Origin: Agathobacter sp.
GTDB taxonomy: Bacteria > Bacillota > Clostridia > Lachnospirales > Lachnospiraceae
Length of the DNA: 40,329 bases
Direction: 5' to 3'
NCBI GenBank assembly: GCA_017623935.1
Contig: JAGAOC010000092.1
Coordinates: 1 to 40,329, forward strand
Part shown: positions 10,735 through 31,069 of the stretch, piece by piece
Layout of the letters: every line of letters starts with the position of its first letter
How positions within the stretch are numbered: position 1 is the stretch's first letter
The notes under the pieces: generated by a model
Databases searched by the model: none
What the model was told of the DNA's origin: nothing
The model's input: the letters and a program-made list of their open reading frames with translations, nothing else
Program-made: the position numbers and the translations under genes

Positions 10735-10763
10735 TTGATTTTTTTACAGAAAGAGTGTATAAT
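10735..10763 (+). promoter_or_regulatory. Predicted sigma-A promoter of the surface-fibre locus
   Basis: TTGATT (10735-10740), a 17-base spacer and TATAAT (10758-10763) lie about 160 bases upstream of the first gene of the locus. The predicted start near 10770 leaves a leader of about 150 bases. Confidence 0.7.
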
Positions 10764-10796
10764 TGAATCGGAAAAGACTGAAAAACGAGCGAAAAC

Positions 10797-10838
10797 AAAC
10801 AAAAATTATACAAATTCAACAATTGTATAGTTTTGTTT
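10797..10838 (+). promoter_or_regulatory. AT-rich hairpin in the leader of the surface-fibre operon
   Basis: Bases 10797-10813 pair imperfectly with 10823-10838 (core TATACAA/TTGTATA, then A/T pairs with one bulge and one wobble). The 3' arm is T-rich. It could act as an attenuator or 5' stability element. The stem is nearly all A-T, so its stability is doubtful. Confidence 0.4.
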
Positions 10839-10920: not shown

Positions 10921-11382
10921 ATGAATGAAAAAGAATTTCGAAAACTAAAACGAAGCGAATTAATTGAGCTGATCTATGAGCTGGAAGTTGACCTTGAGAA
11001 GCTACAACAGGAAAACGAGCAGTTGAAGCAACAATTAGATCAGAAGACAACAGAAATAAGAAATCTAGTCTCCCTTGAGCAGGCAATTGAGAGGTTGAAC
11101 GGGATTTGTGAAGTGGCAGACCCAAGTTCAGGCGAAGAAACAGTCAAAGAAGAAATTGTCAGAGAAGAAACAGTTAGAGAAGAAACAGTTAGAGAAAAAA
11201 CTGTGCAGGAAAAGGCTATAGAGGAAATGGTAAATCCGTCCAAATCTCGAAGTGGAGAAGAGGATCGGTTAGATGAGATGCTGAATCAGAGAGCATCACG
11301 TATTGATGTTGCAATCCAGAGAATGGAAGAAGAACATAAAGCAGAATGGCAGAAGATCAAGGATGAACAGCTAAAGAAGTAA
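10921..11382 (+). CDS. Coiled-coil protein of unknown function with pentapeptide repeats
   Basis: I do not recognise this 153-residue protein. Residues 8-60 form a strongly predicted coiled coil with Leu/Ile heptads (SELIELIYELEVDLEKLQQE). Residues 72-101 are tandem five-residue units of the form EETVR. Residues 108-153 are a second charged helix. There is no signal peptide or membrane segment, so it is predicted to be cytoplasmic. It is the first gene after the promoter and lies 18 bases before a signal peptidase gene in the same direction, which suggests a role in regulating or scaffolding surface-fibre production. The start has only a weak ribosome binding site. Confidence 0.7.
   Translation: MNEKEFRKLKRSELIELIYELEVDLEKLQQENEQLKQQLDQKTTEIRNLVSLEQAIERLNGICEVADPSSGEETVKEEIVREETVREETVREKTVQEKAIEEMVNPSKSRSGEEDRLDEMLNQRASRIDVAIQRMEEEHKAEWQKIKDEQLKK
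11134..11223 (+). repeat. Tandem 15-base repeats encoding EETVR-type pentapeptides
   Basis: Six consecutive 15-base units encode EETVK, EEIVR, EETVR, EETVR, EKTVQ and EKAIE. Two neighbouring copies (GAAGAAACAGTTAGA) are identical. Copy-number change would alter length without shifting the frame. Confidence 0.8.
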
Positions 11383-11400: not shown

Positions 11401-11976
11401 ATGCCAGAGCAGCAACGAAAAGAAATTCCGTCTCTTGAAGTAGTAAAAAAAGAGAGGGAGCGATTGTTAAAGCAAAAACAGAATATAAGAACGATTCTGA
11501 ATGTGGCAGGACTTTTGATCGTAGTAGCAGCTGTGTCGATCATTATTTCTACGAGGTTTCTTCCAGTGATAAAAGTCTCAGGAAGTAGTATGGAACCAAC
11601 CTTGCAACAGGATGAAATTCTGATTTTTGCAAAAAAAGGTAAAATCCAATCCGGGGATATCATAGCTTTTTATTATCAGAATAAAATTTTAATAAAGCGT
11701 GTGATCGGTGTTCCGGGAGATTACATAGAAATACAAGATGTCGGCAAAGTAATGGTGAATGGACAAGTGATAGAGGAACCATATGTTGCCGATTTTTCAG
11801 TGGGAGAATGTGATATAGATTTTCCATATCAGGTACCGGAAGGCAAGTACTTTGTGTTGGGAGATAATCGTGCAGTTTCCATGGACAGTAGAAATTCCAC
11901 GATCGGTTGTGTGTCAGAAGAGCAGGTATTAGGAGAAGCATTGATCAAAATGTTTCCATTTGAAAAAATAGATTAA
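11401..11976 (+). CDS. lepB: Signal peptidase I, Gram-positive (Ser/Lys) type
   Basis: This 191-residue membrane peptidase removes signal peptides on the outer face of the membrane. A charged cytoplasmic N-terminus precedes one membrane helix (about 31-50). The catalytic serine is S63 in SGSSMEPT and the catalytic lysine is K99 in IKRVIGVPGD; box E is LGDNRAVSMDSRN. The Ser/Lys pair distinguishes it from the second signal peptidase of this locus. CAGGAGAAG precedes the ATG. Its position right before giant adhesin 1 suggests a dedicated role in maturing fibre proteins, although general use cannot be excluded. Confidence 0.93.
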   Translation: MPEQQRKEIPSLEVVKKERERLLKQKQNIRTILNVAGLLIVVAAVSIIISTRFLPVIKVSGSSMEPTLQQDEILIFAKKGKIQSGDIIAFYYQNKILIKRVIGVPGDYIEIQDVGKVMVNGQVIEEPYVADFSVGECDIDFPYQVPEGKYFVLGDNRAVSMDSRNSTIGCVSEEQVLGEALIKMFPFEKID

Positions 11977-12000
11977 TTTTCCGTGAAAAGGAGCAATAGT

Positions 12001-15000
12001 ATGCGGAGAAAAGTAAAATCCTACCTAGACAAATTGAATGAGAATAAGAAGGGAAATGGAAAAAGGAGAATCTGGGTCGCCTTATGCAGTATCCTAGTGG
12101 CATTAGGGGTACTTGGTGTTTTGATTGCGCCAGGTGAAGCCAGTGAGACGGGAACTGACGGTACATCGACTGTTAATGAAAGTCTCGTGATCGGTTTCTC
12201 ACCGAAAGAGCATAGTGCATCGTCGGGAACGTCTATTTCTATCAAGGTAATCTCTAACTACTCGAAGGCGAATTACGAGAACGAAAAAGTAACGTCTGTA
12301 ATTAAGCTGGGAGAATTGCCAGAGGGAATTTCATTGGCGGGCTTTGATGGCAATGGACAGCAGGTTGTTAAGCTGCAAGGTGCAGAGGGCATAGCTGAAC
12401 AGGAGATCATACTGCAGATCGTGGAGCAGGATGGAATTTCCTATATCGAATACGCACAGCCAGCAGGTTCAACTTTAGAGTTTGACATTCAGTTCAAGTC
12501 AAAGAACGGTATTACAGCGGACAATACTTCTATAACGGTTGAAGTGGCTGAGGACATGGTGGAAGGCCTTGGAGAAGATGCTCAGGTAACCATCGCAGAA
12601 GGATTTTCAGAATCTGCTACTTTAACATGGAATGCAAAGAATGAATGGGATCCGGTTGACAAGAAAGTAAACGATGAAGATGCCAACGCTATAGCAGTAA
12701 CAGCAGATAATAAATTATCCGGAATGTTGACATACACCATTAAGGCAACAAGCCTTAATCGGGAGAATTTCGGAAGAGTTTGGACAAAAGAGATTCAGGT
12801 AATCGATTCCTTGACCTTACCGTCCAATATCTCTTTCCCATCTGATATTAAAGTGGATGGAAATGCCATTGTAACAGAGGCAGGAGAGACCGTTCTTTCC
12901 TTTGAAGATCTTCCAGAAGGAACAACCGTTAATATCCTTAACATTTCAGATGATAAGAAAACGATCTCTTATTCCTTGACAGTACCAAATACTCATGTGT
13001 CAAATGGAGTATTAACAGCAGAACAGGACAACTTAGACCTGACCATGAAACTGAATGCAGAACTCCTTGTTCTGCCAGCAGATTATAATATTACTCATGA
13101 GATCGGAACGATCGATGCAGATAAGATCATCAATAGTGTATCTGTTCAGCCGATCACATATCATGGAGATGCAAAAGATCCAACTCTTGATGCAGTAGTA
13201 ACTGTACCAGAGATCGAAGCGGAAAAATGGCAACTGACCAAATCTGCAGATCAGGAAGAGATCGAAGCAGGAGGAGTCATTACCTATACGCTGAAATTGG
13301 AAAATATCAGCCAGACACCGATCGAGGTGGAAAAAGAAGACGGTTCTTACTATACGGTAACAGATGTGCTTCCAGCTCAGTTGTATTTAACAACCGAACA
13401 GCAGAATGCATTACCGGAAAATGTAACCTATGATTCCGACACGAATACGATCACATGGACGCCAAGTAAAGAAGCTATTCCTTATGGCCAGTCCTATGAG
13501 ATCCAGTTTGCAACAACAGTAAAAGCGATCACAGATGAAGATATCAAGGATTTAAGCACCGGATATGAGATCAAAAACACAGCAGAATTTAAAGATGCTG
13601 CTTCTAATGAGACTACAGTAGAATATTGTAAAGCGGTATTGACTGTGAGCAAGACTGCAACAACAGCAGATGGAAATAAGACCGTTTATAATGGAGAAAA
13701 AGTTACTTATACTGTAGTTATCAGTAATAAATCTGGTGTAGATGCTCAGAATTCAGAGACAATGACAGATATGCTTCCAACGGGAGTGACTCTGGAAAAT
13801 GTTTATGTTTACACTACCCAAAACGGAACGACATCATCACAGGAGATCAATGTAAATGGTGGAGAATGTGTACTGCATGATGTTCCAGCTGATACGTCAA
13901 ATACAAACTGTGTAAAAGCTGATCACAAAGTGGTATACGCAAGAGATGCACAGAATCTTTCCTTTGATATTGGAGCATTAGCGAATGGAGAATCTGTAAA
14001 GATTCAATATGTATGTACCGTAGACACTGACCAGATCTCAACCAGACAGAACATTTACAATACAGCTAAGACAACAGAGAAATCTTCTCAGTGTGTAATT
14101 GGTGTTGATTATCCAATTACTTTGGAGAAGACAGTAGATAAAAATGATGGAGCTGCATATCCAAGCGGAGAGATCTTTGAATATACCATTACCGTTTCTA
14201 ATGATGCAGATCATCCAAGTTTGAAAGATGATCTGAAGCTGGTAGATCAGTTGCCATCAGGAATGTTGCCATATCCGAACGGGGAAGACAGTGTTCTGAT
14301 CATGACAACTGCATCCGGTACTCAGGAGATCAGTTGGAGTGATTATGTTGATGAAGTGTATGATTCTGAAGGAGGAACTTTCTCCACCAGCGTATCAGGC
14401 AGGACAGCAACAGTAGAGAAAGTAAATGGAGCTGTAAAACTTACCTGGGATATTGGAAGTGTTCCAACGGATGCGCCGATCGTTCTTACTTATAAGGCGC
14501 AGATGATCCTGACAGCAGAGCAGCAGGAAACAGGTACAGCTTATAACTTTGTTAATACGGCGACAATTGATAATATCAGCAAATCTGTAACGGTTATCGG
14601 TGGACAGAAGACCGGAAAATTGATGCTTAAGAAGAGATTTGCTGAAGTATATAGCGATGAAACAATCGTAACAACTTTAGGTGACTTAGACACAGATCCA
14701 AACTGGGATATTGAGTTTTTATTAACACAGTTGGATGATGATGGAAATGCAATTTCTGAACGGACCATTAAAATGACCGATTTCACTGGTCCGGTAGATG
14801 ATATTTATACATACGAGATAGATAACCTTCCAATTGGAAAATATCGGATCGAAGAGTTTAATTTTGTTGCAAAAGAAGGCTGTGAAGCACTTCCACAGTT
14901 CAGTTATTTTCTGAAGATGGATGGTATCTGGTATCAGACCATGAACTTCCATAAATTGACCTTTGATCTGGCAGAGAATCAGGAAATTGATATGTCGGTT

Positions 15001-17508
15001 ACTAACTATTCTTTTGAATATGAGACCGTTAAGTTCCAGAAGAGTGTTTACGAGATCGGAAAACTGAAAACAGGAGATACAACCTGGACTTCTCTTCCAG
15101 AGAAATATCTGTTCTCCATTGATGATACAGATACAGATAAGACTTATGTAGTATACAATCTGACCACTTCCGTTACAGGAGGTTATTCAGTAGAATTGGG
15201 AACGATCGTAGATCAGCTTCCAAAAGGATTGAAGTTCGTAGGACTCTGCAGTACTTCCAGTTACGCGAAGAAATCCAGTGCTTTTTCTCAGACTATCACC
15301 ACCAGTTCTAGTAATGGATTTAATGATGCAGTATCAGTTGAGAACAATTTGATCTCATATTTAGATGGATATACAGTAACGGCAGATTCTTATGATGAAG
15401 ATACCAATGAGGTTACCATCTCCATCAAGAGGATCATAAAAGGATCTAGTTATACGTACATTCATTCTAATGTTTCCGCGGGAGAGGCAATTTCCTTTGG
15501 AATGCTTTGTGAAGTGGATAGTGATGTAATGGAAGGTCAGGAATTGACCAATACCGCAACCCTTACCGTAACAGGTGCGGAATATGTAGATACAACAGAT
15601 GTTTATAGCATGACGAACACCCCATATGATCAGAAGCAGAACAACGGCGATGTGAAATGGGAAGATGTAGTTACAGATGACAGTTCTTATAAGACAATCA
15701 CTTCATCTGTTACAGTAGTTCCACAGAACTCTATTGTACCTGGCATTGAGAAGAATGCAGTAAGTTATATACCTGCTGGCAGTACACAGGCAGAGATTGA
15801 TGCAGCTCAGGAAGGTGGTCAGGGAGATTACTCCATTGGAGAGTATACCAATATCCAGTCTAATTCGGCAGTGAAGTGGGAGATTACTCTTCACAACGAT
15901 GGAACTCAGGATATGACGAACTACAGTATCCAAGATGTGGTATCTGAGGATCAGAGCATGATGACTTCAGATGGAACCAGTAGTTCTAAGATTCATCTGT
16001 TGACGGAAGCGGATAATGAAAGTTACCAGATCACAACTCCATATATGTATCAGATCTACAACTACAAGGGTGAGTTACAGAGCGAAGAAGATATTTCTGA
16101 TATTGTATGGGCACAGGTAGCAGACGGAACTAATGTAAAAGAATTTACCTTTGATTTCTCAGACAGTAAGTACACAATTCCATCTGGTGGTTATGCAGTG
16201 CTTACTCTTTATACCAGTAACCCGGATCAGGAGAACAAGATCTACAACAATACAGCAACTGTTCTTCCAACCCAGGAGTTCGTTGCAGGTAAGGTAACAT
16301 TAGGAGAACTGGTAAAAGACAGTAATGGAAGTTATATTGGAGTAAAGGCTTCAGATCAGGTATATTCCTTAGGAAAATATGCATCTGTATCTTGGAAGAC
16401 TATTACCGAGAAAGCAGATTCTACCAATACTGCAAAAGGTGCTTCAAGTAAGAACTATATTGTAGTAGAAAAAGAATCCGAATACGTTACTTATACCAAT
16501 AACATTAGAAATATAAGTGACAACAACTTTAACAAATTTGTAGTGATCGATCTACTTCCTATGAAGAACGATACCGGTGTTATAAACCGTAATGATCTTC
16601 GAGGAAGTGAGTTCCAGGTACTTTTTGCAGAAGAATTATCTGTAAAAGTCCTTGATAACGAGACCGGAGAATATCGAGATGTGGATTATGATCTGGAATT
16701 CTCAGCTAAGACTGCATTTACGCAGAATGATTTTGCGGGAGTAGCAAGTGACAGCTGGCATACAGATTACAATGAAGCAGAAGATCTTTCTTTCCGTGTA
16801 GTATTAGCAGATACCTTTATGCTGGCTCCACAGGAGACATTGATCATTCAGTATGATGGAAAGATTGAGTCCAGCGCAACGCCAGGCACTATTGCATGGA
16901 ACAGTTTTGGATATCAGTACTATCTGACCAGTGATCAGGCTCAGTACATGAGAGCTGAACCTCCTAAAGTAGGTGTTATGATCCCAGCAGTTCCGATGAT
17001 TCAGAAAGAAGTAATCGATTCAGAAGGAAATGTTCAGGAAAAGGATGCAAATATTAACTTTACCTTTGCACTTTTCGAGAAGACCACGTCGGATACAGGA
17101 GCAGTTAGTGAGCAATATTTGTGTGAATTTACTTTGAGTCAGGGAGGCTATCGTCAATTAGATGATCTGATAGATACCAATGGAAATCCGATAGAGCTTG
17201 TAGAGGGTACGGAATATGTGATCAGGGAATTGACAGATGAGCAATATATGCCGAAATATTATGAAGCAGTCGGTATTGGCGAAAATGGCGGAACACTTTC
17301 AGATTCCTTCAGTTTTGTTTATTGTAAGACTGAAAAGATCAACATTTTGGCACGAAACAAAGTTACTAATTATGTTCCAGAGCTTCCAGCAACCGGTGCA
17401 AACAGTGCACTTATCATTAAGGTTATAGGATCATTATTATTGATCTTATCGGCAGTTCTGTTATGTGGTTATAAAGTTAGCAATCAGAAAGCAAAAAGGA
17501 GAGGATAA
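12001..17508 (+). CDS. Giant LPxTG-anchored adhesin 1 with DUF11-like repeats
   Basis: This cell-wall protein of about 1835 residues probably forms the tip or an accessory subunit of the pilus. It has an unusually long basic N-terminal region before the signal helix (about 27-45). DUF11-like and other beta-sandwich modules begin near residues 410, 545, 705, 1007, 1244 and 1461, Cna-B-like segments near 870 and 1664, then LPATG (1795-1799), a membrane helix and an RRG end. Many modules carry the TYTLKLENIS type of strand seen in isopeptide-stabilised domains. C623, H626, C637 and H642 form a possible metal site. I choose ATG 12001 because AAAAGGAG (11986-11993) is seven bases upstream; GTG 11983 overlaps that site. 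It is a paralogue of the protein at 24781. The ligand is unknown. Confidence 0.88.
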   Translation: MRRKVKSYLDKLNENKKGNGKRRIWVALCSILVALGVLGVLIAPGEASETGTDGTSTVNESLVIGFSPKEHSASSGTSISIKVISNYSKANYENEKVTSVIKLGELPEGISLAGFDGNGQQVVKLQGAEGIAEQEIILQIVEQDGISYIEYAQPAGSTLEFDIQFKSKNGITADNTSITVEVAEDMVEGLGEDAQVTIAEGFSESATLTWNAKNEWDPVDKKVNDEDANAIAVTADNKLSGMLTYTIKATSLNRENFGRVWTKEIQVIDSLTLPSNISFPSDIKVDGNAIVTEAGETVLSFEDLPEGTTVNILNISDDKKTISYSLTVPNTHVSNGVLTAEQDNLDLTMKLNAELLVLPADYNITHEIGTIDADKIINSVSVQPITYHGDAKDPTLDAVVTVPEIEAEKWQLTKSADQEEIEAGGVITYTLKLENISQTPIEVEKEDGSYYTVTDVLPAQLYLTTEQQNALPENVTYDSDTNTITWTPSKEAIPYGQSYEIQFATTVKAITDEDIKDLSTGYEIKNTAEFKDAASNETTVEYCKAVLTVSKTATTADGNKTVYNGEKVTYTVVISNKSGVDAQNSETMTDMLPTGVTLENVYVYTTQNGTTSSQEINVNGGECVLHDVPADTSNTNCVKADHKVVYARDAQNLSFDIGALANGESVKIQYVCTVDTDQISTRQNIYNTAKTTEKSSQCVIGVDYPITLEKTVDKNDGAAYPSGEIFEYTITVSNDADHPSLKDDLKLVDQLPSGMLPYPNGEDSVLIMTTASGTQEISWSDYVDEVYDSEGGTFSTSVSGRTATVEKVNGAVKLTWDIGSVPTDAPIVLTYKAQMILTAEQQETGTAYNFVNTATIDNISKSVTVIGGQKTGKLMLKKRFAEVYSDETIVTTLGDLDTDPNWDIEFLLTQLDDDGNAISERTIKMTDFTGPVDDIYTYEIDNLPIGKYRIEEFNFVAKEGCEALPQFSYFLKMDGIWYQTMNFHKLTFDLAENQEIDMSVTNYSFEYETVKFQKSVYEIGKLKTGDTTWTSLPEKYLFSIDDTDTDKTYVVYNLTTSVTGGYSVELGTIVDQLPKGLKFVGLCSTSSYAKKSSAFSQTITTSSSNGFNDAVSVENNLISYLDGYTVTADSYDEDTNEVTISIKRIIKGSSYTYIHSNVSAGEAISFGMLCEVDSDVMEGQELTNTATLTVTGAEYVDTTDVYSMTNTPYDQKQNNGDVKWEDVVTDDSSYKTITSSVTVVPQNSIVPGIEKNAVSYIPAGSTQAEIDAAQEGGQGDYSIGEYTNIQSNSAVKWEITLHNDGTQDMTNYSIQDVVSEDQSMMTSDGTSSSKIHLLTEADNESYQITTPYMYQIYNYKGELQSEEDISDIVWAQVADGTNVKEFTFDFSDSKYTIPSGGYAVLTLYTSNPDQENKIYNNTATVLPTQEFVAGKVTLGELVKDSNGSYIGVKASDQVYSLGKYASVSWKTITEKADSTNTAKGASSKNYIVVEKESEYVTYTNNIRNISDNNFNKFVVIDLLPMKNDTGVINRNDLRGSEFQVLFAEELSVKVLDNETGEYRDVDYDLEFSAKTAFTQNDFAGVASDSWHTDYNEAEDLSFRVVLADTFMLAPQETLIIQYDGKIESSATPGTIAWNSFGYQYYLTSDQAQYMRAEPPKVGVMIPAVPMIQKEVIDSEGNVQEKDANINFTFALFEKTTSDTGAVSEQYLCEFTLSQGGYRQLDDLIDTNGNPIELVEGTEYVIRELTDEQYMPKYYEAVGIGENGGTLSDSFSFVYCKTEKINILARNKVTNYVPELPATGANSALIIKVIGSLLLILSAVLLCGYKVSNQKAKRRG

Positions 17509-17509
17509 C

Positions 17510-19024
17510 ATGAAAAGAATTAAAAAAGTTTTGGCAACTGCGCTGACCATGATCATGGTTCTGGCAATGGGAATGACAGCCTATGCTGCAACAGTAACAA
17601 TTGATGATGCAAACGGAGATACTTCTGAATATAGTGCATATCAGTTGTTTACAGCAATAATTGATGAGAATGGTACAGATGATGAATCAGATGATGCCGT
17701 AGCATACTCTGTAAATAGCAAATATCAGGCTATTTTGGCAGAGATCACTGGTAAGGCTTCAAGCAATGACATGGTAGATTACATTTCTGCTTTAGATACA
17801 GCAGATGCTCAGAGAAACTTTGGTGATACTGTTTATGCAGCCATTAAAGAAGAAAGCCTTACAGCTGATGCAACAACAACTTCTCAGAGTTTTGAATTAG
17901 ATCCAGGTTATTACCTGATCGTTGAAACAACATTAGGAACTAATGCAGATGGAAAACCAGGAACCTATTCTTTAGTGATTTTAGATACTGCTAAAAATAA
18001 CAATATGACCATCACAACAAAAGAAGATGTTCCAACATTAGTTAAGAAAGTTCAGGAAACCAACGATACAGAAAATACTACAACTGATTGGCAGGATGGT
18101 GCAGACTATGATTATGGTGATGCAGTTCCATTCAAGCTGACAGGTACATTACCAAGCAATTATGCAAGCTACAAGACATATTACTACTCTTTTGCAGATA
18201 AGTTAGCAGCAGGTCTTACATTTGACAACAGCAGCGTAGTAGTAAAAGTTGATGGAACAAAGATCACTTCTGGTTATGAAGTAGTGACAACTGGTCTCAG
18301 CGATGGATATACTTTTGAAGTTCGTTTCGCAAACCTGAAAAACATTACTAGTGTAACAGCAGACAGCACAATTACTGTAGAATACAGTGCAACTGTTAAT
18401 ACAGATGCAGTGATTGGTGCAGCTGGAAACCCTAACGTTGCAAAACTGGTATACTCTAATGATCCTTACTATGATGGAAATGGTACAGAGAGCACTTCTG
18501 AAACACCAGAAGATAAAGTTATCGTTTTCACATATCAGGTAACCGTTAATAAAGTAAATACTTCTGGAAATCCACTGAAAGGTGCAGGATTTACATTATA
18601 CAAATCTGTAGCAGGAAATTACGTAGCTGTTGGAAGCGAAGTAAAAGGCGATGATATCACTACTTTTGAGTTTAAGGGATTAGATGCTGGTACATATAAA
18701 TTAGTAGAGTCTACTGTACCAACAGGATTTAATAAAGCAGATGATCTGATCTTTGAGATCAGCGCAGCTTATGACACAGAAAGTGATAATCCAGCTCTTA
18801 CAGGAGTTGCTGCAAAAGATGAAGCAGGAAAAGCAATTTCCGGTGTGGCAGATGCGATCTTCACAATTTCTGATGGTGTATTTACCGTAGAAATTGAAAA
18901 CGTTAGTGGAATCCTTCTTCCTACAACTGGTGGAATTGGTACAACAATTTTCTATATTGTTGGTGCAGCACTTATGATCACAGCAGTGGTTTTATTAGTA
19001 GCAAAGAAACGTAAAGCAAATTAA
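17510..19024 (+). CDS. Major pilin, isopeptide-forming fimbrial subunit (LPTTG)
   Basis: This 504-residue shaft pilin has a signal peptide ending near AYA (about residue 24), a first pilin domain with YSAYQLF and DPGYYLIVET, a second domain starting after DVPTLVKKVQ (the lysine region typical of linkage or isopeptide formation), a SpaA/Cna-B domain (VTVNKVNTSGNPLKGAGFTLYK to DAGTYKLVEST), and a C-terminal LPTTG (470-474), membrane helix and KKRKAN tail. The ATG at 17510 follows AAGGAGAGG and lies one base after the adhesin stop. A class C sortase follows, as in known pilus islands. A strong hairpin after the stop may raise its mRNA level relative to the sortase. Confidence 0.93.
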   Translation: MKRIKKVLATALTMIMVLAMGMTAYAATVTIDDANGDTSEYSAYQLFTAIIDENGTDDESDDAVAYSVNSKYQAILAEITGKASSNDMVDYISALDTADAQRNFGDTVYAAIKEESLTADATTTSQSFELDPGYYLIVETTLGTNADGKPGTYSLVILDTAKNNNMTITTKEDVPTLVKKVQETNDTENTTTDWQDGADYDYGDAVPFKLTGTLPSNYASYKTYYYSFADKLAAGLTFDNSSVVVKVDGTKITSGYEVVTTGLSDGYTFEVRFANLKNITSVTADSTITVEYSATVNTDAVIGAAGNPNVAKLVYSNDPYYDGNGTESTSETPEDKVIVFTYQVTVNKVNTSGNPLKGAGFTLYKSVAGNYVAVGSEVKGDDITTFEFKGLDAGTYKLVESTVPTGFNKADDLIFEISAAYDTESDNPALTGVAAKDEAGKAISGVADAIFTISDGVFTVEIENVSGILLPTTGGIGTTIFYIVGAALMITAVVLLVAKKRKAN

Positions 19025-19031
19025 TAATGAG

Positions 19032-19074
19032 TTAGTATCCTTCATGGGCGGGGTTCCCCGCCCGGAGGTACTAA
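19032..19074 (+). other. Large GC-rich hairpin between pilin and sortase genes
   Basis: TTAGTA/TACTAA (19032-19037, 19069-19074), CCTTC/GGAGG (19039-19043, 19064-19068) and GGGCGGG/CCCGCCC (within 19046-19063) stack into a stem of about 18 pairs with small bulges. It is followed by TTATAG rather than a T tract. It is probably a 3'-end stabiliser or partial terminator. The rest of the 199-base gap (19075-19223) shows no gene or clear promoter. Confidence 0.7.
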
Positions 19075-19223
19075 TTATAGATAATACAGTGACAGGGAAA
19101 AACTGATGATAAAATTGGCGTTTTTAAAGCTGGACATCGTGAGTCTTTCCGTGGTACTGTGTTAAATAGCAAATTGTACCGAAATCCTTTCAATAGGAGA
19201 ATGAATATTGAGGGAGAAGTAGA

Positions 19224-21629: not shown

Positions 21630-22409
21630 ATGAAACTCATAAAGAGAATCTTTGAAGGAAAAAAAGGAACACTGATCCTTTTTGCAGCGGCTGCCATCTT
21701 GATCGCGTGTAGTGCAGTAGAACCGGCACGGGCGGCGTTGACCTATTTCAGTAATGATTACACCATGCAGATGGAGATTCAGGATATCGGTGTTACCTTG
21801 GTGGAGAAATCCGCGAAAGGGACCAAAGACATTAGTAGTAGAGACTATCTGGGCAGTGATGATAGATGGAGACAGACGAGTGGAGCATTACTGACAGATA
21901 TGTTAAAAGAGACTGATGGGGAATTAGTGATCGGAAGATCTTACAAAGAAGAGCTTTCCGTAAGAAATACCGGAACCATCGATGAATATGTAAGAGTTCG
22001 GATCTTCAAGAGCTGGACAGACGAGAAGGGCAATAAAGTGACCACTTTAGCACCAAGCCTGATCGAACTGAACATGACAAACAACGGCTGGATCGTTGAT
22101 ACAGCAGCTTCTACAGAAGAGCGAACCGTTCTTTACTGGCCTCACATCTTAAAGGTGGGAGAGAGCACCGCAGCTCTTTGTGACAGTATCACCATCAGTA
22201 ATGCTATCATGTCTAAAGTCACAGAGACTACAGAGACCAAAGATGGGCTTACAACGATCACAACTACTTACTGTTATGACGGTATGAAATTTAACGTAGA
22301 AGCAGAAGTAGATGCAGTCCAGACCCATAATGCAGCAGCGGCTATCAAGAGTGCCTGGGGTGTGGATGTAAATGTTTCCGGCAATGGAACAATAAGTCTT
22401 GTAAAGTAG
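21630..22409 (+). CDS. TasA-like protein with SipW-type signal peptide (2)
   Basis: This secreted protein of about 259 residues has an N-terminal signal (14-35) followed by ALTYFSND (36-43), again the SipW-dependent pattern. The conserved strand reads GTIDEYVRVRIFKSW, parallel to the previous protein. No anchor is seen. The ATG at 21630 is preferred because AAGGAGG (21613-21619) lies ten bases upstream; an ATG at 21609 overlaps the preceding stop codon but has no clear ribosome binding site. Related small proteins in other Gram-positives build amyloid-like biofilm fibres or help anchor them. That role is inference here. Confidence 0.73.
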   Translation: MKLIKRIFEGKKGTLILFAAAAILIACSAVEPARAALTYFSNDYTMQMEIQDIGVTLVEKSAKGTKDISSRDYLGSDDRWRQTSGALLTDMLKETDGELVIGRSYKEELSVRNTGTIDEYVRVRIFKSWTDEKGNKVTTLAPSLIELNMTNNGWIVDTAASTEERTVLYWPHILKVGESTAALCDSITISNAIMSKVTETTETKDGLTTITTTYCYDGMKFNVEAEVDAVQTHNAAAAIKSAWGVDVNVSGNGTISLVK

Positions 22410-22422: not shown

Positions 22423-23181
22423 ATGAAGAAAAAGAGTTTGATCATAATGGCAGCAGCCTTGATGATGTTATCTGTTCCAACGGATGTTCATGCAGAGACT
22501 TATTCCGGAGGCAGCGGTTGGAAAGTAGATTTCGACGGGGAAGACTTGACCAGTACCTTTAAGAGTGCAGATATCAACGACGCAATGTATAAACTGCAGC
22601 CAGGAGATACCGTCAATATCGAACTGGATTTAAAGAATACTTCTGAATATGAGACAGAATGGTATATGACCAACGAAGTCTTACAGAGTTTGGAAGATTC
22701 CCAGAACGTAGCCAATGGTGGAGCCTATACATATATCTTAAGATACTATAATCCGGAAGGTGGAAGAGAGACTATCTACAGCAGTGAATCTGTAGGTGGA
22801 GAAGGGACCACAGGTGCAGGAGAAGGTCTTCATCAGGCAACAGATACATTAGAAGATTATTTCTATGTGGATTACTTAGCACCAGGAGAAGCCGGTAAGA
22901 TTACCTTGACGGTATCTTTAGATGGAGAGACCCAGGGTAACGATTATCAGGATACCATGGCAAAACTGCAGATGAATTTCGCGGTAGAGCCGATCATCGT
23001 AGATGAAGATGATCCAACCAAGGTCATTGCAAAAAGACCAGTGATCATCAAGACCGGAGATGACTTATCCGGCATGATCCCATCAGTAGTACTGTTTACA
23101 GCAGGAATAGCAGTTTTTGTGATCGCTATCGTAAAAGTACGGGCAGATAAGAAACGGGCTCATGAGAACCGAGCAGAATAA
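22423..23181 (+). CDS. Membrane-anchored TasA-like surface protein with IKTGD motif
   Basis: This 252-residue protein has a normal signal peptide ending VHA (about residue 24) and an exported domain with KLQPGDTVNIELDLKNTSEY, a pattern common in TasA-like and spore-coat-like beta proteins. The C-terminus has IIKTGDD (208-214), a membrane helix (about 217-237) and a basic tail. That tripartite layout resembles a sorting signal, but the motif is IKTGD rather than LPxTG. It may be the wall-anchored or membrane-anchored base of the SipW-branch fibre. A GAGGGGA site precedes the ATG. No exact family recognised. Confidence 0.7.
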   Translation: MKKKSLIIMAAALMMLSVPTDVHAETYSGGSGWKVDFDGEDLTSTFKSADINDAMYKLQPGDTVNIELDLKNTSEYETEWYMTNEVLQSLEDSQNVANGGAYTYILRYYNPEGGRETIYSSESVGGEGTTGAGEGLHQATDTLEDYFYVDYLAPGEAGKITLTVSLDGETQGNDYQDTMAKLQMNFAVEPIIVDEDDPTKVIAKRPVIIKTGDDLSGMIPSVVLFTAGIAVFVIAIVKVRADKKRAHENRAE

Positions 23182-24780: not shown

Positions 24781-27700
24781 ATGCGGGAAAATATGAAAAA
24801 ATATTTACAAGAATTAGGAGAAAATAAGAAAAAGCGTGGAAGAATGAAATTTCTGACTGCTTTTTGTAGTATCTGTATTTTGGTAGGAGTAGTGTGTTCT
24901 TTGATCTTGCCAGGTTTTGCTGCGGGAGATTTAGATGATGGCGAGCAGGTAAATCAAGAATTACAGATTGGTATGTCTGCCAGTCAGACTACTGCACTTA
25001 CAGGTGAGTATCTGACGGTACATCTCTATTCTACATATTCAAAAGCGAATAATACCGGGGAAAATGTTACAGTTAGAATAGATATGGGACAGCTCCCAGA
25101 GGGAATCAGTCTGCCTGATTTTATCAATGATAAATTAGAATATACCCAGGGAGAAGGGGAAGACCAGCAGACAATCCTATTGGAAATTAAGAAAGATGAG
25201 AATGATAATTCATACATTTTCTATGAGCAGCCTGCCGGATCTACACTGGATGTATATATTAATTTCCTGTGTGAGAAGGGAATTATTCCACAGGAGACCA
25301 CTATTCAATTACAAGTGGGAGAGATTACAGGTCTTGAGGATGAGAATCAGGTTAATAATACTACTCAAAATGATGGAGTCATTGATCTGACTTGGACAGC
25401 GGAACATAGCTGGGATCCGGTAACGAAAACCGTAGACAATAGTACGATCGCTGTAACAGGAGAGAATAAGCTCTCTGGAGATCTGACTTATACGATCAAA
25501 GCAAATTCCGCAAATGTAGATGGAATTGGTAAGATCTGGACGAAGTATGTTACGGTAGCAGATACATTAGTTCTTCCAACTGGTATTACATTACCAAGCG
25601 GGGCAAAAGTTAGTGATGATAAGACCGCAATCGTTACAGCGGATGGGACACAAACAATCCTTTCATTTACTAATTTAGCAGATGTAAGTGGAAGTGTGAT
25701 AAGTCTTCAGATCGTAAATGATCAGACGGTCTCTTATGTAGTACAGGTTCCAAATACTCATAAGAACGAAAGTGGTGTATTGACAGCAGAGCAAGATAAT
25801 CTTTCTCTTACTATGTTATTGAAATCTGAACTTCTGACTCTGGAAACAGATTATGCACCTGCAGCAACAGACTTTATTATCAATAGTGTGGTATTTAAGT
25901 CAGAACCATGTCAGGAATATGAGGTAACTGAAACTACGGCTACAGCAACAACTCAGCCGGTACTGAAAGATGAGACTTATGAACTGAAAAAAGTTGGCGA
26001 GTATGTAGATGACAGCATTGAAGGTGTTGTTGCCGGAGGCGAAGTAAAATATACTATTACATTGAAGAATACAGGAGAGGTGCCATTAACTGTAAAAAAA
26101 GAGGATGGAACTTCTGAAGTAGTAACGGATATCCTTTCTCAATATTACTATCTCACTGAGGCTCAGAAAGCAGCTCTTCCAACAAGTGTAACCTATGATG
26201 AAGAGAAAAATCAGATTACATGGATACCTAGTGAAGAAAAGATTCCAGTTGGAGAATCTGTAACATTGACTTTTACCGTAACAGTAAAAGATGACACAAT
26301 GTTGCAGGAGCAGGGAATTCCACTTCTGAAAAACGGAGATAAGATTCAAAATACAGCCACTTATAAAAAGAACGGCCCAAGTTCTTTAACAGTTGATGTG
26401 ATATATAGAAGACCTGTTCTGACCATTGAAAAAACAAGTCAGGATGAAGATGATGATGGTGTGAATGAAGTACATAACGGAGAAAAGATCACTTATACAA
26501 TTAAGGTAAAAGGTGATGAAGAATTAGACGGAACTGGCACCACCACAATAGAAGATACACTCCAGGAGGGACTGACTTTTGAATCGGTTACAATTGGAGG
26601 TACTGAATATACGACATCAAGTGAATGTCAACTTCATGGAAGTACAGAAGGATGTCAAAGCGAGCATAAATGTATTTTTACCATAGACGGACAGGATTTA
26701 AGTTTTAATATTGGATGTCTGAAAGCAAACGAAGAGATCACGATCAGTTATGTATGTAAAGTTGATACAGATCTTTTGGTTTATAGTAAAACTCAGATTG
26801 AAAATACTGCAACGATCCCGGATGGCTCATCCAATAATATAATTGGAGTAGATTATCCGATCAAACTTCTTAAAACAGTAGATAAAGACACTTCGGAAGC
26901 TTATGCAAGCGGAACTGTATTTACCTATAAAGTTGTTGTATCAAATGATCTGGAAAATCCAAGTGTGGGAAAAGATCTGGTGCTGGAAGATCAGCTTCCG
27001 GAGGGTCTGCTTCCATATGGATATGATCTCATACAGACAAATAAATCCACAAATGAAACTCAGACCATAGAATGGGAAGATTTTGTGGGGGGAACCTATG
27101 ACACAACGACTTACAGTTATACTACTACAATAGATGGTATTACTACAAATGTAGAGAATGTATCCGGCAAAGTAAAACTGAGTTGGAATGTGGGTGAATT
27201 GGCAGCTGGAGAAAGCTATGAGATATCTTATCAGGCTCAGATGACTTTAACAGAGGAACAGATCGAGTCAGGAAGATCTTATAAGTTCATGAACGTGGCA
27301 ACCGTTGATGGAATCACAAGTGAGGTCACTGTAACAGGTGGTGTAAAAGTTGGTAGCTTAAAGATCAGTAAACAGTTCCTGAAATATATAGGAGATCGTG
27401 TATATAAGGGTGGAAGATACAAAGACACAGATCCTCAGATGAATGTAGAATTTGTATTGTCTGGTGTTGATCCTAAGGGTAACCAGATCGTGTTTGAAGA
27501 TGGATCTACCGAGTTATCTGTAAAAGTAAAAGATTTTACAGTTCATTCCAATGAAGTTACATTTATCTATGAATTCGATAAACTTCCAGTGGGAACTTAT
27601 ACCCTGCAGGAGAAAAACTATGAGTTAGATGGTCACACAGTATATCCAAATATAGGAGTTACCTATAATGGGGAAAATACTTATTTTGGAGATACAGCAG

Positions 27701-30156
27701 TTTTTGAGATTGGAGAAAATGTACAGACCACTATATGGGATAATAACTGTTGTTATACAGATCTTACTGTGAATTTGCAGAAGAGTGTTTTCGAGATCGC
27801 TCAGGAGACCACGAACGCAGATGGTAGCAAAACATGGACATCATTGCCGGATAAATATCTGTTTTCAACAGATATCAGCGATAATGTTAAGAATTATGTA
27901 GTATATAATATCACAGTATCAGCTACCGGATATGGAACACTGCAGATGCCAGAAGGAATTGTGGATAGATTACCAAGTGGCATGAAATACGTAGGTATCT
28001 ATAACAAAGCAGATTATACCAATAGCAGTAGCTTTGTATCCAGTACCGATGGTTCCATAAAGACTCTGGAGTTAAATGATTCAACACAGATGAATGATTG
28101 TCTGTCTGTAGAATATTGGCCGACATCCTATTTGGGATCATGCCCGATCACAGCAACTTACGATGAAACAGCAAATGAAGTTACGTTTGCGATCAGTAAT
28201 GGTGGAAAGAGCACTCTGCCAGCAGGAAAGGCATATTCATTCCTGGTTCTTTGTGAAGTAGACAGTAGTGTTGTAGCAGGACAGCAGTTGACCAACACAA
28301 TAGAGTTAAAGACCACCAATGCAGTTGGTCTGACAGGAAGTGAAGAGTATCAGACAGTAAATACACCATGTGATGCTAATCAGAATAATGGAATGGCAAC
28401 ACTGGTAGCAGAAGATAATGGAAAGTTGACCATTCAGGCCGCTGTAACAGTTGTGCCGGAAAATACAATTGTGCCAGGTATTGAAAAGAAAGCTGCGTCC
28501 TATCTTCTTCCAGGACAGAAGGAAGGATCAGAAACAGCATTTACAGAGACCACAAATATCCAGTCTAATGCAGCTGTAAAATGGGAAGTTACATTGTATA
28601 ATAACGGAACTCAGGACATGGTGAATTATACAGTTAAAGATGTAGTTACACCCGATTTCCATTTAATGAACCAGACAGAAGCCACCAGATTTGGAATCAC
28701 TGCTCCATTTAATTTCCAACTTTATGATTACAATGGAAATGCAGTGGGAGATGCTATTAATATTTCTGCAGAAGTTTGGAATACAGTAGCAGACAGTACA
28801 CAGGTAAACGAGTATGAATTTGATCTAACAGGAGAAGAATTTACGATCCCTGCTGGATATTATGCAATCTTGACCGTGTATACAAATAATACAACCGTAA
28901 AGAATCAGATCTATAAAAATACCGCAACGATCCTTCCAACCCAGTCTTTTGTTGCCAATAAGGTAAAACATGGCGAACTGGTAAAAGATACGGATGGAAC
29001 ATACATTGGAGTGTCTGCGACAGATCAAGTGTATGCGTTGGGTGAATATGCTTCTATCTCATGGAAGACTATTACTGAGAAAGAAAATGAGAGTAATACA
29101 GCTAAGGGAACTTGGAGTAAGAACTATATTACCCTAGGTCTGGATTCCACGAACGAAGTAACTTATACCAATAATATCAAGAATATCAGTAAGAACAATT
29201 TCAACCAATTTGTTATCATTGATCTAATGCCTAAGAAGAATGATACTGGTGTTATCAATCAAAATGATGTTCGAGGAAGTGAATTCCGAGTATTATATAA
29301 TGGTAATATGAAGGTTCAGGTTCTCGATGGAAGCGGAAATGTAGTAGAAGAGCCGGATTTTGTTGTAGAATTTTCTGCGAAGACAGGATTTACCCAGAAA
29401 GATTTTGCAGGAGAGAGCAGCACCAACTGGCATAGTGAGTGGACAGAAAGTGATTATTCATTCCGAGTGATCTTAGAAGAAGATTTCTATCTGCAGCCAC
29501 AGCATACACTGGTAATTACCTATGATGGAATCATAGAATCATCTGCAACACCAGGAGCTATTGCTTGGAATAGTTTTGGATATCATTATTGCTCAGGAAG
29601 TGACAGCACTTCAATGTTAGCAGAGCCACCGAAGGTAGGAGTGATGATCCCAACGGTTCCGATCATTCAAAAGGAAGTAGTGGACTTATTCGATTGTGTT
29701 CAGGAAATGGATTCCAATATCGAATTTACCTTTGTACTTTGGGAAGAACAGTCTAGTGGCAATGGAACGGAATTTGTCAGATTATGTGATTTTAAGGTAT
29801 GCCAGGGTGGATATCAGGAGTTATCAGATCTGAAAGACAAGGACAATAATTCTGTTAAACTTATCAATGGAACCACTTACAAGATTACAGAAGATGTGGA
29901 TTCCATGCCAGAAGATTATACACTTATCGGTATCGGCGAAAAAGGTAGTGCCTTGTCAGAAAGTTATACATTTACCTACTATGATAATAAGGATATCAAT
30001 ATTCTTGCAAGAAATAGGTTAGATTCTTCTGTTTTGGAACTTCCTGCAGCAGGTGGAATCAGCGCGAGAGTATTCCGATTATTGGGTGTCGTAATAGTGT
30101 TATCAGGCATTTTAGCATGTAGTATTTTAGTAATCTGTAAAGGCAATAAAAGATGA
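24781..30156 (+). CDS. Giant wall-anchored adhesin 2 with DUF11-like repeats (LPAAG)
   Basis: This 1791-residue paralogue of giant adhesin 1 has the same plan: a long basic N-region (KKYLQELGENKKKRGR), signal helix, DUF11-like and Cna-B-like modules, then LPAAG (1754-1758), a membrane helix and KGNKR. Similarity to adhesin 1 is strongest in the C-terminal third (for example GELVKD, ASISWKTITEK, KNDTGVIN, ATPGAIAWNSFGY). The sorting motif has Ala in place of Thr. C616, H619, C625, H629 and C631 form a possible metal-binding cluster like that in adhesin 1. GAGGGAAAC precedes the ATG, and a second sortase gene overlaps its 3' end by four bases, suggesting that enzyme anchors or links it. Confidence 0.88.
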   Translation: MRENMKKYLQELGENKKKRGRMKFLTAFCSICILVGVVCSLILPGFAAGDLDDGEQVNQELQIGMSASQTTALTGEYLTVHLYSTYSKANNTGENVTVRIDMGQLPEGISLPDFINDKLEYTQGEGEDQQTILLEIKKDENDNSYIFYEQPAGSTLDVYINFLCEKGIIPQETTIQLQVGEITGLEDENQVNNTTQNDGVIDLTWTAEHSWDPVTKTVDNSTIAVTGENKLSGDLTYTIKANSANVDGIGKIWTKYVTVADTLVLPTGITLPSGAKVSDDKTAIVTADGTQTILSFTNLADVSGSVISLQIVNDQTVSYVVQVPNTHKNESGVLTAEQDNLSLTMLLKSELLTLETDYAPAATDFIINSVVFKSEPCQEYEVTETTATATTQPVLKDETYELKKVGEYVDDSIEGVVAGGEVKYTITLKNTGEVPLTVKKEDGTSEVVTDILSQYYYLTEAQKAALPTSVTYDEEKNQITWIPSEEKIPVGESVTLTFTVTVKDDTMLQEQGIPLLKNGDKIQNTATYKKNGPSSLTVDVIYRRPVLTIEKTSQDEDDDGVNEVHNGEKITYTIKVKGDEELDGTGTTTIEDTLQEGLTFESVTIGGTEYTTSSECQLHGSTEGCQSEHKCIFTIDGQDLSFNIGCLKANEEITISYVCKVDTDLLVYSKTQIENTATIPDGSSNNIIGVDYPIKLLKTVDKDTSEAYASGTVFTYKVVVSNDLENPSVGKDLVLEDQLPEGLLPYGYDLIQTNKSTNETQTIEWEDFVGGTYDTTTYSYTTTIDGITTNVENVSGKVKLSWNVGELAAGESYEISYQAQMTLTEEQIESGRSYKFMNVATVDGITSEVTVTGGVKVGSLKISKQFLKYIGDRVYKGGRYKDTDPQMNVEFVLSGVDPKGNQIVFEDGSTELSVKVKDFTVHSNEVTFIYEFDKLPVGTYTLQEKNYELDGHTVYPNIGVTYNGENTYFGDTAVFEIGENVQTTIWDNNCCYTDLTVNLQKSVFEIAQETTNADGSKTWTSLPDKYLFSTDISDNVKNYVVYNITVSATGYGTLQMPEGIVDRLPSGMKYVGIYNKADYTNSSSFVSSTDGSIKTLELNDSTQMNDCLSVEYWPTSYLGSCPITATYDETANEVTFAISNGGKSTLPAGKAYSFLVLCEVDSSVVAGQQLTNTIELKTTNAVGLTGSEEYQTVNTPCDANQNNGMATLVAEDNGKLTIQAAVTVVPENTIVPGIEKKAASYLLPGQKEGSETAFTETTNIQSNAAVKWEVTLYNNGTQDMVNYTVKDVVTPDFHLMNQTEATRFGITAPFNFQLYDYNGNAVGDAINISAEVWNTVADSTQVNEYEFDLTGEEFTIPAGYYAILTVYTNNTTVKNQIYKNTATILPTQSFVANKVKHGELVKDTDGTYIGVSATDQVYALGEYASISWKTITEKENESNTAKGTWSKNYITLGLDSTNEVTYTNNIKNISKNNFNQFVIIDLMPKKNDTGVINQNDVRGSEFRVLYNGNMKVQVLDGSGNVVEEPDFVVEFSAKTGFTQKDFAGESSTNWHSEWTESDYSFRVILEEDFYLQPQHTLVITYDGIIESSATPGAIAWNSFGYHYCSGSDSTSMLAEPPKVGVMIPTVPIIQKEVVDLFDCVQEMDSNIEFTFVLWEEQSSGNGTEFVRLCDFKVCQGGYQELSDLKDKDNNSVKLINGTTYKITEDVDSMPEDYTLIGIGEKGSALSESYTFTYYDNKDINILARNRLDSSVLELPAAGGISARVFRLLGVVIVLSGILACSILVICKGNKR

Positions 30157-31037
30157 AACGCCATAAATGGAAAATAGTAATCATTATAGTTTTTATTATA
30201 GGCTTTTTCTTAATGCTGTATCCGGATTTCAGTAATTATTGGAATTCAAAGAATCTATCAACGGTGGTAAGATCCTATCATGAATCTATGGAGAGTTTTT
30301 CCGAGGAAGATTATGAAAAGGAATTTGGAGCAGCAGAAGCCTATAATGAAGACCTTCGCAATATTAATTTCCCTTTCCGGAATTATGATCTGGTAGAAGG
30401 ATATGAAGATATTTTAGATATATCCGAAACAGGTATCATGGGGTATTTGACCATTGATAAGATCAATGTGGAACTGCCAATTTACCATGGAACTTCAGAA
30501 GGGGTGTTGCAGATCGGTGTAGGTCATCTGCAGGGATCCAGTTTACCAACTGGAGGAATTGGAAATCATACAGTATTATCGGCTCATAATGGATTAGCAG
30601 ATGCAGAGCTTTTTACGAATCTGGATCAGATGGAAAAAGGGGATACATTTACTGTTACGGTATTAGATCGCAAGCTGACCTATCAAGTGGATCAGATTGT
30701 AGTTGTGGAACCCCAGGAATTTTCAGAACTGGCCATTGACGAGGAAAAGGATTACTGTACACTTCTTACTTGTACGCCTTTTGGAGTGAATTCTCACCGA
30801 TTGTTAGTGCGAGGAGTTAGAGTTGATGATACAGATATGGGTATATTTGCAGATGGAAAACTGTTAGATTCTAATATGGTATTCCTCGTAATGTTTGTGA
30901 GCATAAGTGTGCTTGCGTTGTTGATCTTCTTTGGATGGAGATTTTTCCATAACAAGAGGAATCTTGCAATCAGCTCTCTGAAAGATAGAATAAGAAATGG
31001 CAATATAGCAAATGAAAAAGAGAAGGATCGCAAATAA
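30153..31037 (+). CDS. Class C-like sortase 2
   Basis: This 294-residue transpeptidase has membrane helices near residues 8-24 and 233-254 and a Lys/Arg/Asn-rich tail. The catalytic residues are H145 in LSAHNG, C207 in TLLTCTPFG and R216 in SHRLLVRG. The histidine is followed by Asn rather than the Arg in the GHRG of sortase 1, and the domain is otherwise class C-like (YHGTSEGVLQIGVGHLQGSSLP). It overlaps the stop of giant adhesin 2 by four bases (ATGA), so the two are translationally coupled. Its natural substrate may therefore be the LPAAG motif. It closes the locus before a strong terminator. Confidence 0.9.
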   Translation: MKRHKWKIVIIIVFIIGFFLMLYPDFSNYWNSKNLSTVVRSYHESMESFSEEDYEKEFGAAEAYNEDLRNINFPFRNYDLVEGYEDILDISETGIMGYLTIDKINVELPIYHGTSEGVLQIGVGHLQGSSLPTGGIGNHTVLSAHNGLADAELFTNLDQMEKGDTFTVTVLDRKLTYQVDQIVVVEPQEFSELAIDEEKDYCTLLTCTPFGVNSHRLLVRGVRVDDTDMGIFADGKLLDSNMVFLVMFVSISVLALLIFFGWRFFHNKRNLAISSLKDRIRNGNIANEKEKDRK

Positions 31038-31069
31038 AAAGACGTCGGTGTTATCACCGGCGTCTTTTT
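31036..31069. terminator. Shared bidirectional terminator of convergent operons
   Basis: A 15-bp stem (31036-31050 with 31055-31069, one G-T pair) has a four-base loop and A5/T5 flanks. It serves the sortase operon on the plus strand and can also end the pilT operon on the minus strand. Confidence 0.93.

What the first reader, a model, noticed from the sequence alone, without database searches (positions are those of the whole stretch)
10735..31069. Composite surface-fibre locus joining sortase pilus and SipW/TasA-like export
One operon-like run holds a sortase-assembled pilus set (LPTTG pilin, two class C-type sortases, two giant adhesins) and, nested inside it, a SipW-type set (two LAYFT/LTYFS signal proteins, a TasA-like anchored protein, an ER-type signal peptidase). 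The two systems are usually described separately. Their tight spacing and overlapping reading frames suggest a single extracellular structure or a jointly regulated matrix.
Basis: partly seen in the sequence, partly recalled or inferred. Interest (0 to 1): 0.75.

Follow-up and report, generated by a model that had tools for sequence, protein, structure and literature searches.

The report
Pilus operon with borrowed wall-anchoring base
A bacterium carries a pilus gene cluster in which the base pilin lacks the usual wall-attachment tail and a second secretion module, of a type known from biofilm fibres, sits in its place, probably as the part that fixes the pilus to the cell.

Summary
In detail: thirteen same-strand genes (10921-31037) combine a class C sortase pilus with a nested SipW-type set. 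The combination is conserved: of 46 other copies of the set, in 34 genomes, 33 lie behind class C sortase genes, in the order tip > backbone > sortase(s) > g6 > g7 > g8 > g9 > g10 (> SipW). The matrix reading is probably not the best. g6 (20104-21081), at the base-pilin position, keeps a pilin-motif lysine but has no sorting signal: 0 of 46 g6 proteins beside the set have a C-terminal membrane segment. Of 38 readable homologues without the set, 36 keep one and two are fused to a sortase. Instead g9 carries a TGD-type signal, and in three genera SipW is fused to a class B sortase. Best explanation: SipW, class B sortase and g7-g10 form a substitute wall anchor for the pilus, or for giant adhesins ending in the g6 tail. 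Anatomy is shown; mechanism is inferred. In C. perfringens a sipW set and a fimbria are alternative alleles beside srtB. Ten paper searches listed no description of the joint operon or the fusion.

The parts
10921..11382 (+). g1: small coiled-coil-like protein, function unknown
   Evidence: no family hit above cut-off; weak relative in one syntenic locus (L031, 37 bits)
11401..11976 (+). g2: ordinary (bacterial type) signal peptidase I; similar in position to pilus-island SPase I genes (order recalled)
   Evidence: TIGR02227 138 bits, cut-off 47; also seen upstream in several syntenic loci
11983..17508 (+). g3: giant tip-adhesin candidate, DUF11/isopeptide repeats, LPATG sorting signal; likelier start ATG 12001
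   Evidence: PF01345 1.4e-16, TIGR04226 46 bits; AAAGGAG before 12001
17510..19024 (+). g4: SpaH/EbpB-type backbone pilin, LPTTGG
   Evidence: GramPos_pilinBB 1.7e-30; K171 and LPxTGG invariant in 32 of 32 aligned pilins
19030..19076 (+). strong hairpin between pilin and sortase genes, no U run (possible mRNA stabiliser or attenuator)
   Evidence: MFE -29.1 kcal/mol, z -4.3 for 19021-19090
19224..20117 (+). g5: class C sortase
   Evidence: NF033745 260 bits, cut-off 160
20104..21081 (+). g6: base-pilin-like adaptor: pilin N-domain, pilin-motif lysine K183, CnaB-like domain with invariant K197/E257/N288, conserved tail, no sorting signal and no membrane segment
   Evidence: PDB profile hit 4hss E 1.5e-4; DUF5979 2.7e-8; invariant residues in 30 rows; 0 of 46 with a C-terminal membrane segment
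21097..21612 (+). g7: SipW-type exported protein, LAYFT signal
   Evidence: Y31, T33, E55, R77, W96 and E141 invariant in 29 rows; weak BsaA-family hit 24 bits, cut-off 60
21609..22409 (+). g8: SipW-type exported protein, LTYFS signal, probably homologous to g7
   Evidence: hhalign to g7: probability 98, E 1e-14, signal peptide included; weak BsaA-family hit 25 bits, cut-off 60
22423..23181 (+). g9: secreted protein with degenerate sorting signal (IIKTGD at 23044-23061, membrane segment, basic tail); candidate class B sortase substrate
   Evidence: T211 and G212 invariant in 32 rows; C-terminal membrane segment in 53 of 53 relatives scored
23196..24167 (+). g10: MucBP-like domain, acidic VPLA motif, C-terminal membrane segment
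   Evidence: PF06458 0.0016, below cut-off; C-terminal membrane segment in 49 of 50 relatives scored
24115..24657 (+). g11: SipW-like ER-type signal peptidase; in some relatives fused to, or next to, a class B sortase
   Evidence: TIGR02228 89 bits, cut-off 52; fusions
24781..30156 (+). g12: second giant adhesin, paralogue of g3, LPAAG
   Evidence: repeat families D1-D4, 70-79% identical DNA between g3 and g12; TIGR04226 56 bits
30153..31037 (+). g13: second class C sortase
   Evidence: NF033745 263 bits, cut-off 160
31038..31070 (+). terminator-like hairpin with U run closing the cluster
   Evidence: MFE -26.9 kcal/mol, z -5.2 for 31038-31110

Best explanation
This is a class C sortase pilus whose base pilin (g6) has no wall-sorting signal of its own and is held instead by a SipW-dependent anchoring complex. 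Steps: (1) g3 (tip) and g4 (backbone) are polymerised by g5/g13 through LPxTG signals. (2) g6 is added at the base through its pilin-motif lysine. (3) SipW releases g7 and g8, which bind the g6 C-terminal CnaB-like domain and tail. (4) g9, through its TGD sorting signal and a class B sortase, fixes the complex to the peptidoglycan, with g10 as a membrane partner. The same module can hold giant adhesins that end in the g6 tail. Shown here: gene order, its conservation, the sorting-signal swap, the g9 signal, and the SipW-class B sortase fusions in relatives. Inferred: steps 1-4 as chemistry, and all protein contacts.
For: Conserved order: class C sortase upstream in 33 of 46 other modules, 30 of 34 genomes. 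Pairing: of 28 strong g8 places in 250 family genomes, 27 coincide with the 27 strong g6 places; the 28th (G238:C157) begins at a contig end. Sorting-signal swap: 0 of 46 module-associated g6 have a C-terminal membrane segment; of 39 homologues at loci without the module, one is unreadable, 36 have a sorting signal or membrane segment, and two are fused to a sortase domain. The pilin-motif lysine is kept in both groups: 39 of 39 module rows and the 34 of 39 non-module rows that align there. Natural comparison in one genome: L115 holds a pilin of the g6 clade with a GPKTGD signal and no module, beside a g6 without a signal followed by g7-g10 and a SipW-sortase fusion. g9: TG[D/E] before the membrane segment in 54 of 55 distinct proteins, NPxTG-like in one genus. 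SipW fused to class B sortase in three genera and near one in four more loci. In seven modules with no pilus sortase in view, the g6 domain and tail end a giant protein lacking its own signal. A SipW-g8-g9-class B sortase set occurs in another family of the class (L177).
Against: No binding, processing or linkage data. 34 of 46 modules show no class B sortase nearby, nor does the window; its genome has two, on other contigs. g9 mostly lacks the Leu-Pro of a classic signal, and one orthologue (L096) reads KTSD. SipW was not seen within 5.5 kb downstream in 17 of 46 modules; some are cut by contig ends, others (L026, L033) are not. Five modules with a small g6 (L096, L099, L108, L114, L115) have no class C sortase in the stretch searched upstream. 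On the N-domain tree the swap amounts to about 3 changes, at least 2 forced (quick tree), so the Fisher value (2.8e-14, batch 1 only) overstates independence. The g6 profile was built from module members, which favours different C-termini among its weak hits. One non-module locus (L142) has a SipW-profile peptidase beside a signal-bearing base pilin. In C. perfringens, deleting srtB did not change BsaA polymers or pellicles (PMC7395162, passages).
Confidence: 0.55

Rival explanations
1. One reading: g7/g8 polymerise into a separate TasA/BsaA-type matrix fibre that is merely co-expressed with the pilus.
For: SipW-type signals; weak BsaA-family matches for g7 and g8, 24 and 25 bits against a cut-off of 60; BsaA of C. 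perfringens forms SipW-dependent polymers without its neighbouring sortase (PMC7395162, passages).
Against: No TasA or CalY family match; strong modules were not found without g6 except where sequence is cut; it does not explain the missing sorting signal of g6.
Confidence: 0.2
2. The pilus is deliberately not wall-bound: g6 without a sorting signal ends the shaft and releases it as a secreted matrix fibre, with g7/g8 coating or bundling it.
For: g6 has no anchor of its own.
Against: g9 and g10 have C-terminal membrane segments in 53 of 53 and 49 of 50; the g6 tail also ends giant adhesins, which would then be lost from the cell; class B sortase is coupled to SipW in some genera.
Confidence: 0.13
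3. g7 and g8 are extra minor pilins or adhesins carried on the pilus, and the set has no anchoring role.
For: Tight linkage to the pilus genes.
Against: No C-terminal membrane segment in g7 or g8, 0 of 52 each, so no usual sorting signal for incorporation; the module also follows giant adhesins where no pilus sortase is in view.
Confidence: 0.08
4. Two independent surface systems that travel together in one genomic island.
For: Patchy spread, own genome counted: 35 of 250 family genomes, 8 of 196 in the order, 3 of 291 in the class at E 1e-10.
Against: Fixed gene order, overlapping frames, g6-g8 pairing, signal swap.
Confidence: 0.04

Closest known systems
Sortase-assembled FCT-type pilus of Streptococcus pyogenes (Cpa, SipA, FctA, SrtC, FctB)
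   Same: Tip, signal peptidase I homologue, backbone, pilus sortase and base pilin in one operon; base pilin carries the linking lysine (PMC7900414, passages; gene order recalled).
   Different: FctB has its own LPXTG-type signal used by SrtA, and SipA lacks catalytic residues (same passages). Here g6 has no signal, g2 looks catalytic by sequence reading, and a SipW set follows.
C. perfringens sipW-bsaABCRSD operon / VR-10A beside srtB
   Same: SipW, alternate-export proteins and a VWA protein next to a class B sortase (PMC7395162, PMC5964661, passages); resembles the second kind of locus seen here, with a VWA giant in L039 and L040.
   Different: There the fimbrial set (VR-10B) is an alternative allele at the same site, not joined; srtB deletion did not affect BsaA polymers.
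Bacillus tapA-sipW-tasA matrix operon
   Same: SipW-type peptidase and substrates with a similar signal.
   Different: No TasA/CalY family match here; no TapA-family hit among the genes scanned; sortase genes are present.
Ordinary pilus loci of the same family (L123-L161)
   Same: Tip, backbone, class C sortase, and a base pilin with the same N-domain and lysine.
   Different: Base pilin ends in LPQTG, xTGD or a membrane segment; in 12 of 39 a weakly matching sortase-like frame follows; no g7-g9 seen.

Membership tests
Sortase-dependent (SpaA/FCT-type) pilus | pilus-specific (class C) sortase | tested here: met
   NF033745 over cut-off for both
Sortase-dependent (SpaA/FCT-type) pilus | backbone pilin with nucleophile lysine and LPXTG signal | tested here: met
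   K171 and LPxTGG invariant in 32 of 32; family hit; that K171 is the nucleophile is inferred
Sortase-dependent (SpaA/FCT-type) pilus | base pilin with pilin-motif lysine | tested here: met
   K183 in g6, invariant in 30 rows; lysine in 39 of 39 module rows
Sortase-dependent (SpaA/FCT-type) pilus | base pilin carries its own wall-sorting signal | tested here: not met
   g6 has no membrane segment or motif; 0 of 46 including the window's
Sortase-dependent (SpaA/FCT-type) pilus | covalent polymer on the cell surface | not testable with these tools
   needs biochemistry
SipW/TasA matrix system | SipW-type ER-like signal peptidase | tested here: met
   TIGR02228 89 bits over its cut-off of 52; NF046067 (Bacillus SipW) 82 bits, below its cut-off of 190
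SipW/TasA matrix system | TasA/CalY-family fibre protein | tested here: not met
   no Pfam hit for g7 or g9 and no TasA/CalY family among g8's weak hits; no significant TasA chain in PDB profile searches. A fold comparison was not possible (model pLDDT 36)
BsaA family (TIGR04090) | score above the curated cut-off of 60 bits | tested here: not met
   g7 24 bits, g8 25 bits
Class B sortase (half of the fused relatives) | TIGR03064 match, TLSTC-type active site | tested here: met
   5 of 5 fused proteins scanned match; 2 over and 3 just under the cut-off of 153.75; the active-site motif is read from the printed sequences, its meaning is recalled

The most novel reading that the evidence does not exclude
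A previously undescribed way of fixing pili to a Gram-positive wall: a SipW-class B sortase system, in some genera one bifunctional enzyme, builds a multi-protein socket (g7-g10) that receives any protein ending in the g6 CnaB-plus-tail, whether a sortase pilus or a giant adhesin. Two secretion/anchoring pathways thought to be separate are thereby merged into one machine.
Probability: 0.42. Interest if true: 0.82.

Novelty: new variant of a known kind. Interest (0 to 1): 0.68.

Why it matters
The sortase pili that I know of (recalled; FctB passages) are fixed to the wall by a sorting signal on their own base pilin. Here that signal is missing in every g6 seen beside a SipW-dependent module (0 of 46 have it). 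SipW-type proteins may then serve as anchors rather than matrix fibres, and the g6 tail would be a new, modular surface-display signal. The SipW-class B sortase fusions give a directly testable enzyme.

Tried and rejected
Viral contigs held no relative of g8. One structure prediction, mature g8 without an alignment, had mean pLDDT 36 and pTM 0.26, so no fold search was run and the second job was not used. PDB profile searches for g7, g8 and g9 gave nothing usable. Rfam (gathering scores) and tRNA scans of the window were empty. g9 as a g8 homologue: hhalign probability 22, not claimed; g7 with g9 reached 92, signal peptide included. The residue table was shifted by a numbering error; only its printed segment, read by eye, was used. 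A test of independent origins gave about 3 changes, at least 2 forced (quick tree with many long branches and weak forks). Loci of the second kind (L037-L040, L109, L117-L121) were not entered in the 46-module table; L162, L165 and L166 of that kind, and the two class-level loci L176 and L177, were fetched for other questions and are not in it either. Further weak g6 N-domain hits beyond these 39 were not fetched.

Full report
Anatomy. Thirteen genes on one strand run from 10921 to 31037. Ordinary pilus parts: signal peptidase I g2, giant LPATG protein g3, SpaH-type backbone pilin g4 (LPTTG), class C sortase g5, a second giant protein g12 (LPAAG, paralogue of g3), and a second class C sortase g13. 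Nested between g5 and g12 are g6 (pilin-like), g7 and g8 (LAYFT and LTYFS signals), g9 and g10 (C-terminal membrane segments), and g11 (SipW-like ER-type peptidase). Spacing is tight, with four overlaps; the reported g3/g4 overlap is not real because the pilin starts at ATG 17510. A hairpin with a U run closes the cluster, and a strong hairpin without one follows the pilin gene.

Conservation (own genome counted in each figure). A g8 search hit 13 of 60 same-genus genomes. The g8 profile hit 35 of 250 family genomes, with 28 strong places (E up to 1.7e-34) in 19 of them; 8 of 196 order genomes; and 3 of 291 class genomes at E 1e-10. Flanks were fetched and scored with profiles built from the first relatives. 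The same order recurs: LPxTG giant > SpaH pilin > one or two class C sortases > g6 > g7 > g8 > g9 > g10 > SipW. The table has 46 modules besides the window in 34 genomes: class C sortase upstream in 33 (30 genomes), g7 in 45, g9 in 46, g10 in 44, SipW within 5.5 kb downstream in 29, g6 in 44. The two without g6 are L105 (contig end) and a copy cut by the edge of L106; in the overlapping L107 that copy has g6 at the end of a 1072-residue protein. Of the 13 without a class C sortase upstream, seven have g6 at the end of a giant protein, one is cut (L105), and five (L096, L099, L108, L114, L115) have a small g6.

g6 and the module are partners. The g6 profile matched 74 of 250 family genomes, with 27 strong places (E up to 1.6e-29) and then a gap to 7e-21. 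The 27 coincide with strong g8 places, and the 28th g8 place lies at a contig end. The tool scored at most 8 candidates per genome, so absences are not certain. In seven modules with no pilus sortase in view (L036, L094, L100, L103, L104, L107, L116) the g6 CnaB-like domain and tail form the C-terminus of a giant protein without a sorting signal of its own; for some of them, such as L100, a contig end limits the view upstream.

What g6 is. Its N-domain matches the pilin chain 4hss at E 1.5e-4, with 7k7f and 3hr6 weaker. The second domain is DUF5979/CnaB-like, with K197, E257 and N288 invariant in 30 rows, the usual isopeptide triad (recalled). Before it lies a motif, often W-x-Y-D-V, that ends in a lysine: the lysine is present in 39 of 39 module rows and in the 34 of 39 non-module rows that align there (read by eye). 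g6 sits where FctB, the base pilin, sits in S. pyogenes (gene order recalled; role and signal from PMC7900414 passages).

The swap test. I fetched the 20 best weak g6 matches covering the N-domain and the next 19, skipping matches to the second domain only and one at a contig edge. Most lie directly behind a class C sortase. Exceptions: L127 and L132 have the pilin before the sortase, L142 has a SipW-profile peptidase in between, and L160 shows no sortase at all. None shows g7-g9. Batch 1: 18 of 20 have a C-terminal membrane segment, mostly with LPQTG or xTGD; L138 and L141 are fused to a sortase-like domain instead. Batch 2: 16 of 19 pass the same hydropathy threshold of 1.5; L150 and L157 fall under it (1.22, 1.48) but show QPKTGD and LPQTG signals; L158 is masked. 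Together 36 of 38 readable. Among module-associated g6, 0 of 46 pass, and the highest value is 1.05. Fisher on batch 1 gives 2.8e-14, but these are relatives: on the N-domain tree the state changes about 3 times, at least 2 forced. One change is telling. In G458 (L115) a pilin inside the module clade (SH-aLRT 97) has a GPKTGD signal and no module behind it, while the next pilus set in the same locus has g6 without a signal followed by g7-g10 and a SipW-sortase fusion.

Where the sorting signal went. g9 has a C-terminal membrane segment in 53 of 53 scored, a few of them the same protein in overlapping loci. One search lists 55 distinct g9 proteins: 52 with TGD and 3 flagged 'other'. Of these three, L090 has QTGD on reading and L099 and L100 have ITGEE. 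L096 was counted as TGD through another match, but before its membrane segment it reads KTSD; so 54 of 55 have TG[D/E]. In one genus the motif reads, for example, NPQTGD or NPRTGD, close to the NPQTN signal of staphylococcal class B sortase (NPQTN: PMC12445088 passage). Five proteins at the SipW position in the window's genus (L028, L029, L031, L034, L035) are single chains of SipW plus class B sortase, three more lie in genus g166 (L108, L113, L115), and one in G305 (L164, where no g8 is in view). Four further loci have the sortase nearby. A SipW-g8-g9-class B sortase set occurs in another family of the class, on a contig that begins just before it (L177). The window lacks such a sortase; its genome (80% complete) holds two elsewhere, one of them upstream of a second SipW cluster.

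Reading. The simplest account is that g7-g10 with SipW and a class B sortase form the anchor that the base pilin does not have, and that the same anchor serves g6-tailed giant adhesins. g7 and g8 look homologous. Contact between them and g6 is inference. The matrix-fibre reading is not excluded: BsaA of C. perfringens polymerises without its neighbouring srtB (PMC7395162 passages), and g7/g8 show weak similarity to that family.

Known and new. C. perfringens carries either a sipW/alternate-export/VWA set (VR-10A) or a collagen-adhesin fimbria (VR-10B) next to srtB (PMC5964661 passages). Here the two kinds of set are joined. Ten full-text searches listed no paper, by title and abstract start, that describes the joint operon or a SipW-sortase fusion. 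Of the 11 papers holding both SipW and sortase I saw passages of five and only the listing of the rest; two further papers were seen in passages. The library lacks most subscription journals. I file it as a new variant of the sortase pilus: the base pilin's own signal, a defining feature, was tested and not met.

Noticed in passing
31127-36173, - strand: A type IV pilus-like cluster (PilT ATPase, DUF4860 protein, T2SSF protein among them) faces the pilus operon from the other side.
   Followed up: no
9348-10337: A short pyruvate kinase of 329 residues that matches only positions 2-338 of the 476-position model.
   Followed up: no
19030-19076: A very stable hairpin without a U run right after the backbone pilin gene, perhaps for uneven expression of the pilin.
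   Followed up: no
L039 and L122 (own genome, contig C94): A second SipW-g8-g9-g10 cluster with a VWA giant protein, a BTAD/GGDEF regulator, amylase and pullulanase genes, and a class B sortase upstream.
   Followed up: partly
L138 4743-6056 and L141 4152-5735: Base-pilin N-domains whose chain ends in a sortase-like sequence instead of a sorting signal.
   Followed up: no
L032, L033, L111, L112: Fusions inside the module: g9 with g10 in one chain (L032, L033) and g8 with g9 (L111, L112).
   Followed up: no
23196-24167 and relatives: g10 proteins, and some g9, carry a recurring acidic (D/E)xxVPLA motif before the membrane segment; role unknown.
   Followed up: no
L106-L108 (G224), L113-L114 (G487) and L115-L116 (G458): Several g6-g10 cassettes near each other in one genus, some with a pilus, some with a giant protein.
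   Followed up: partly
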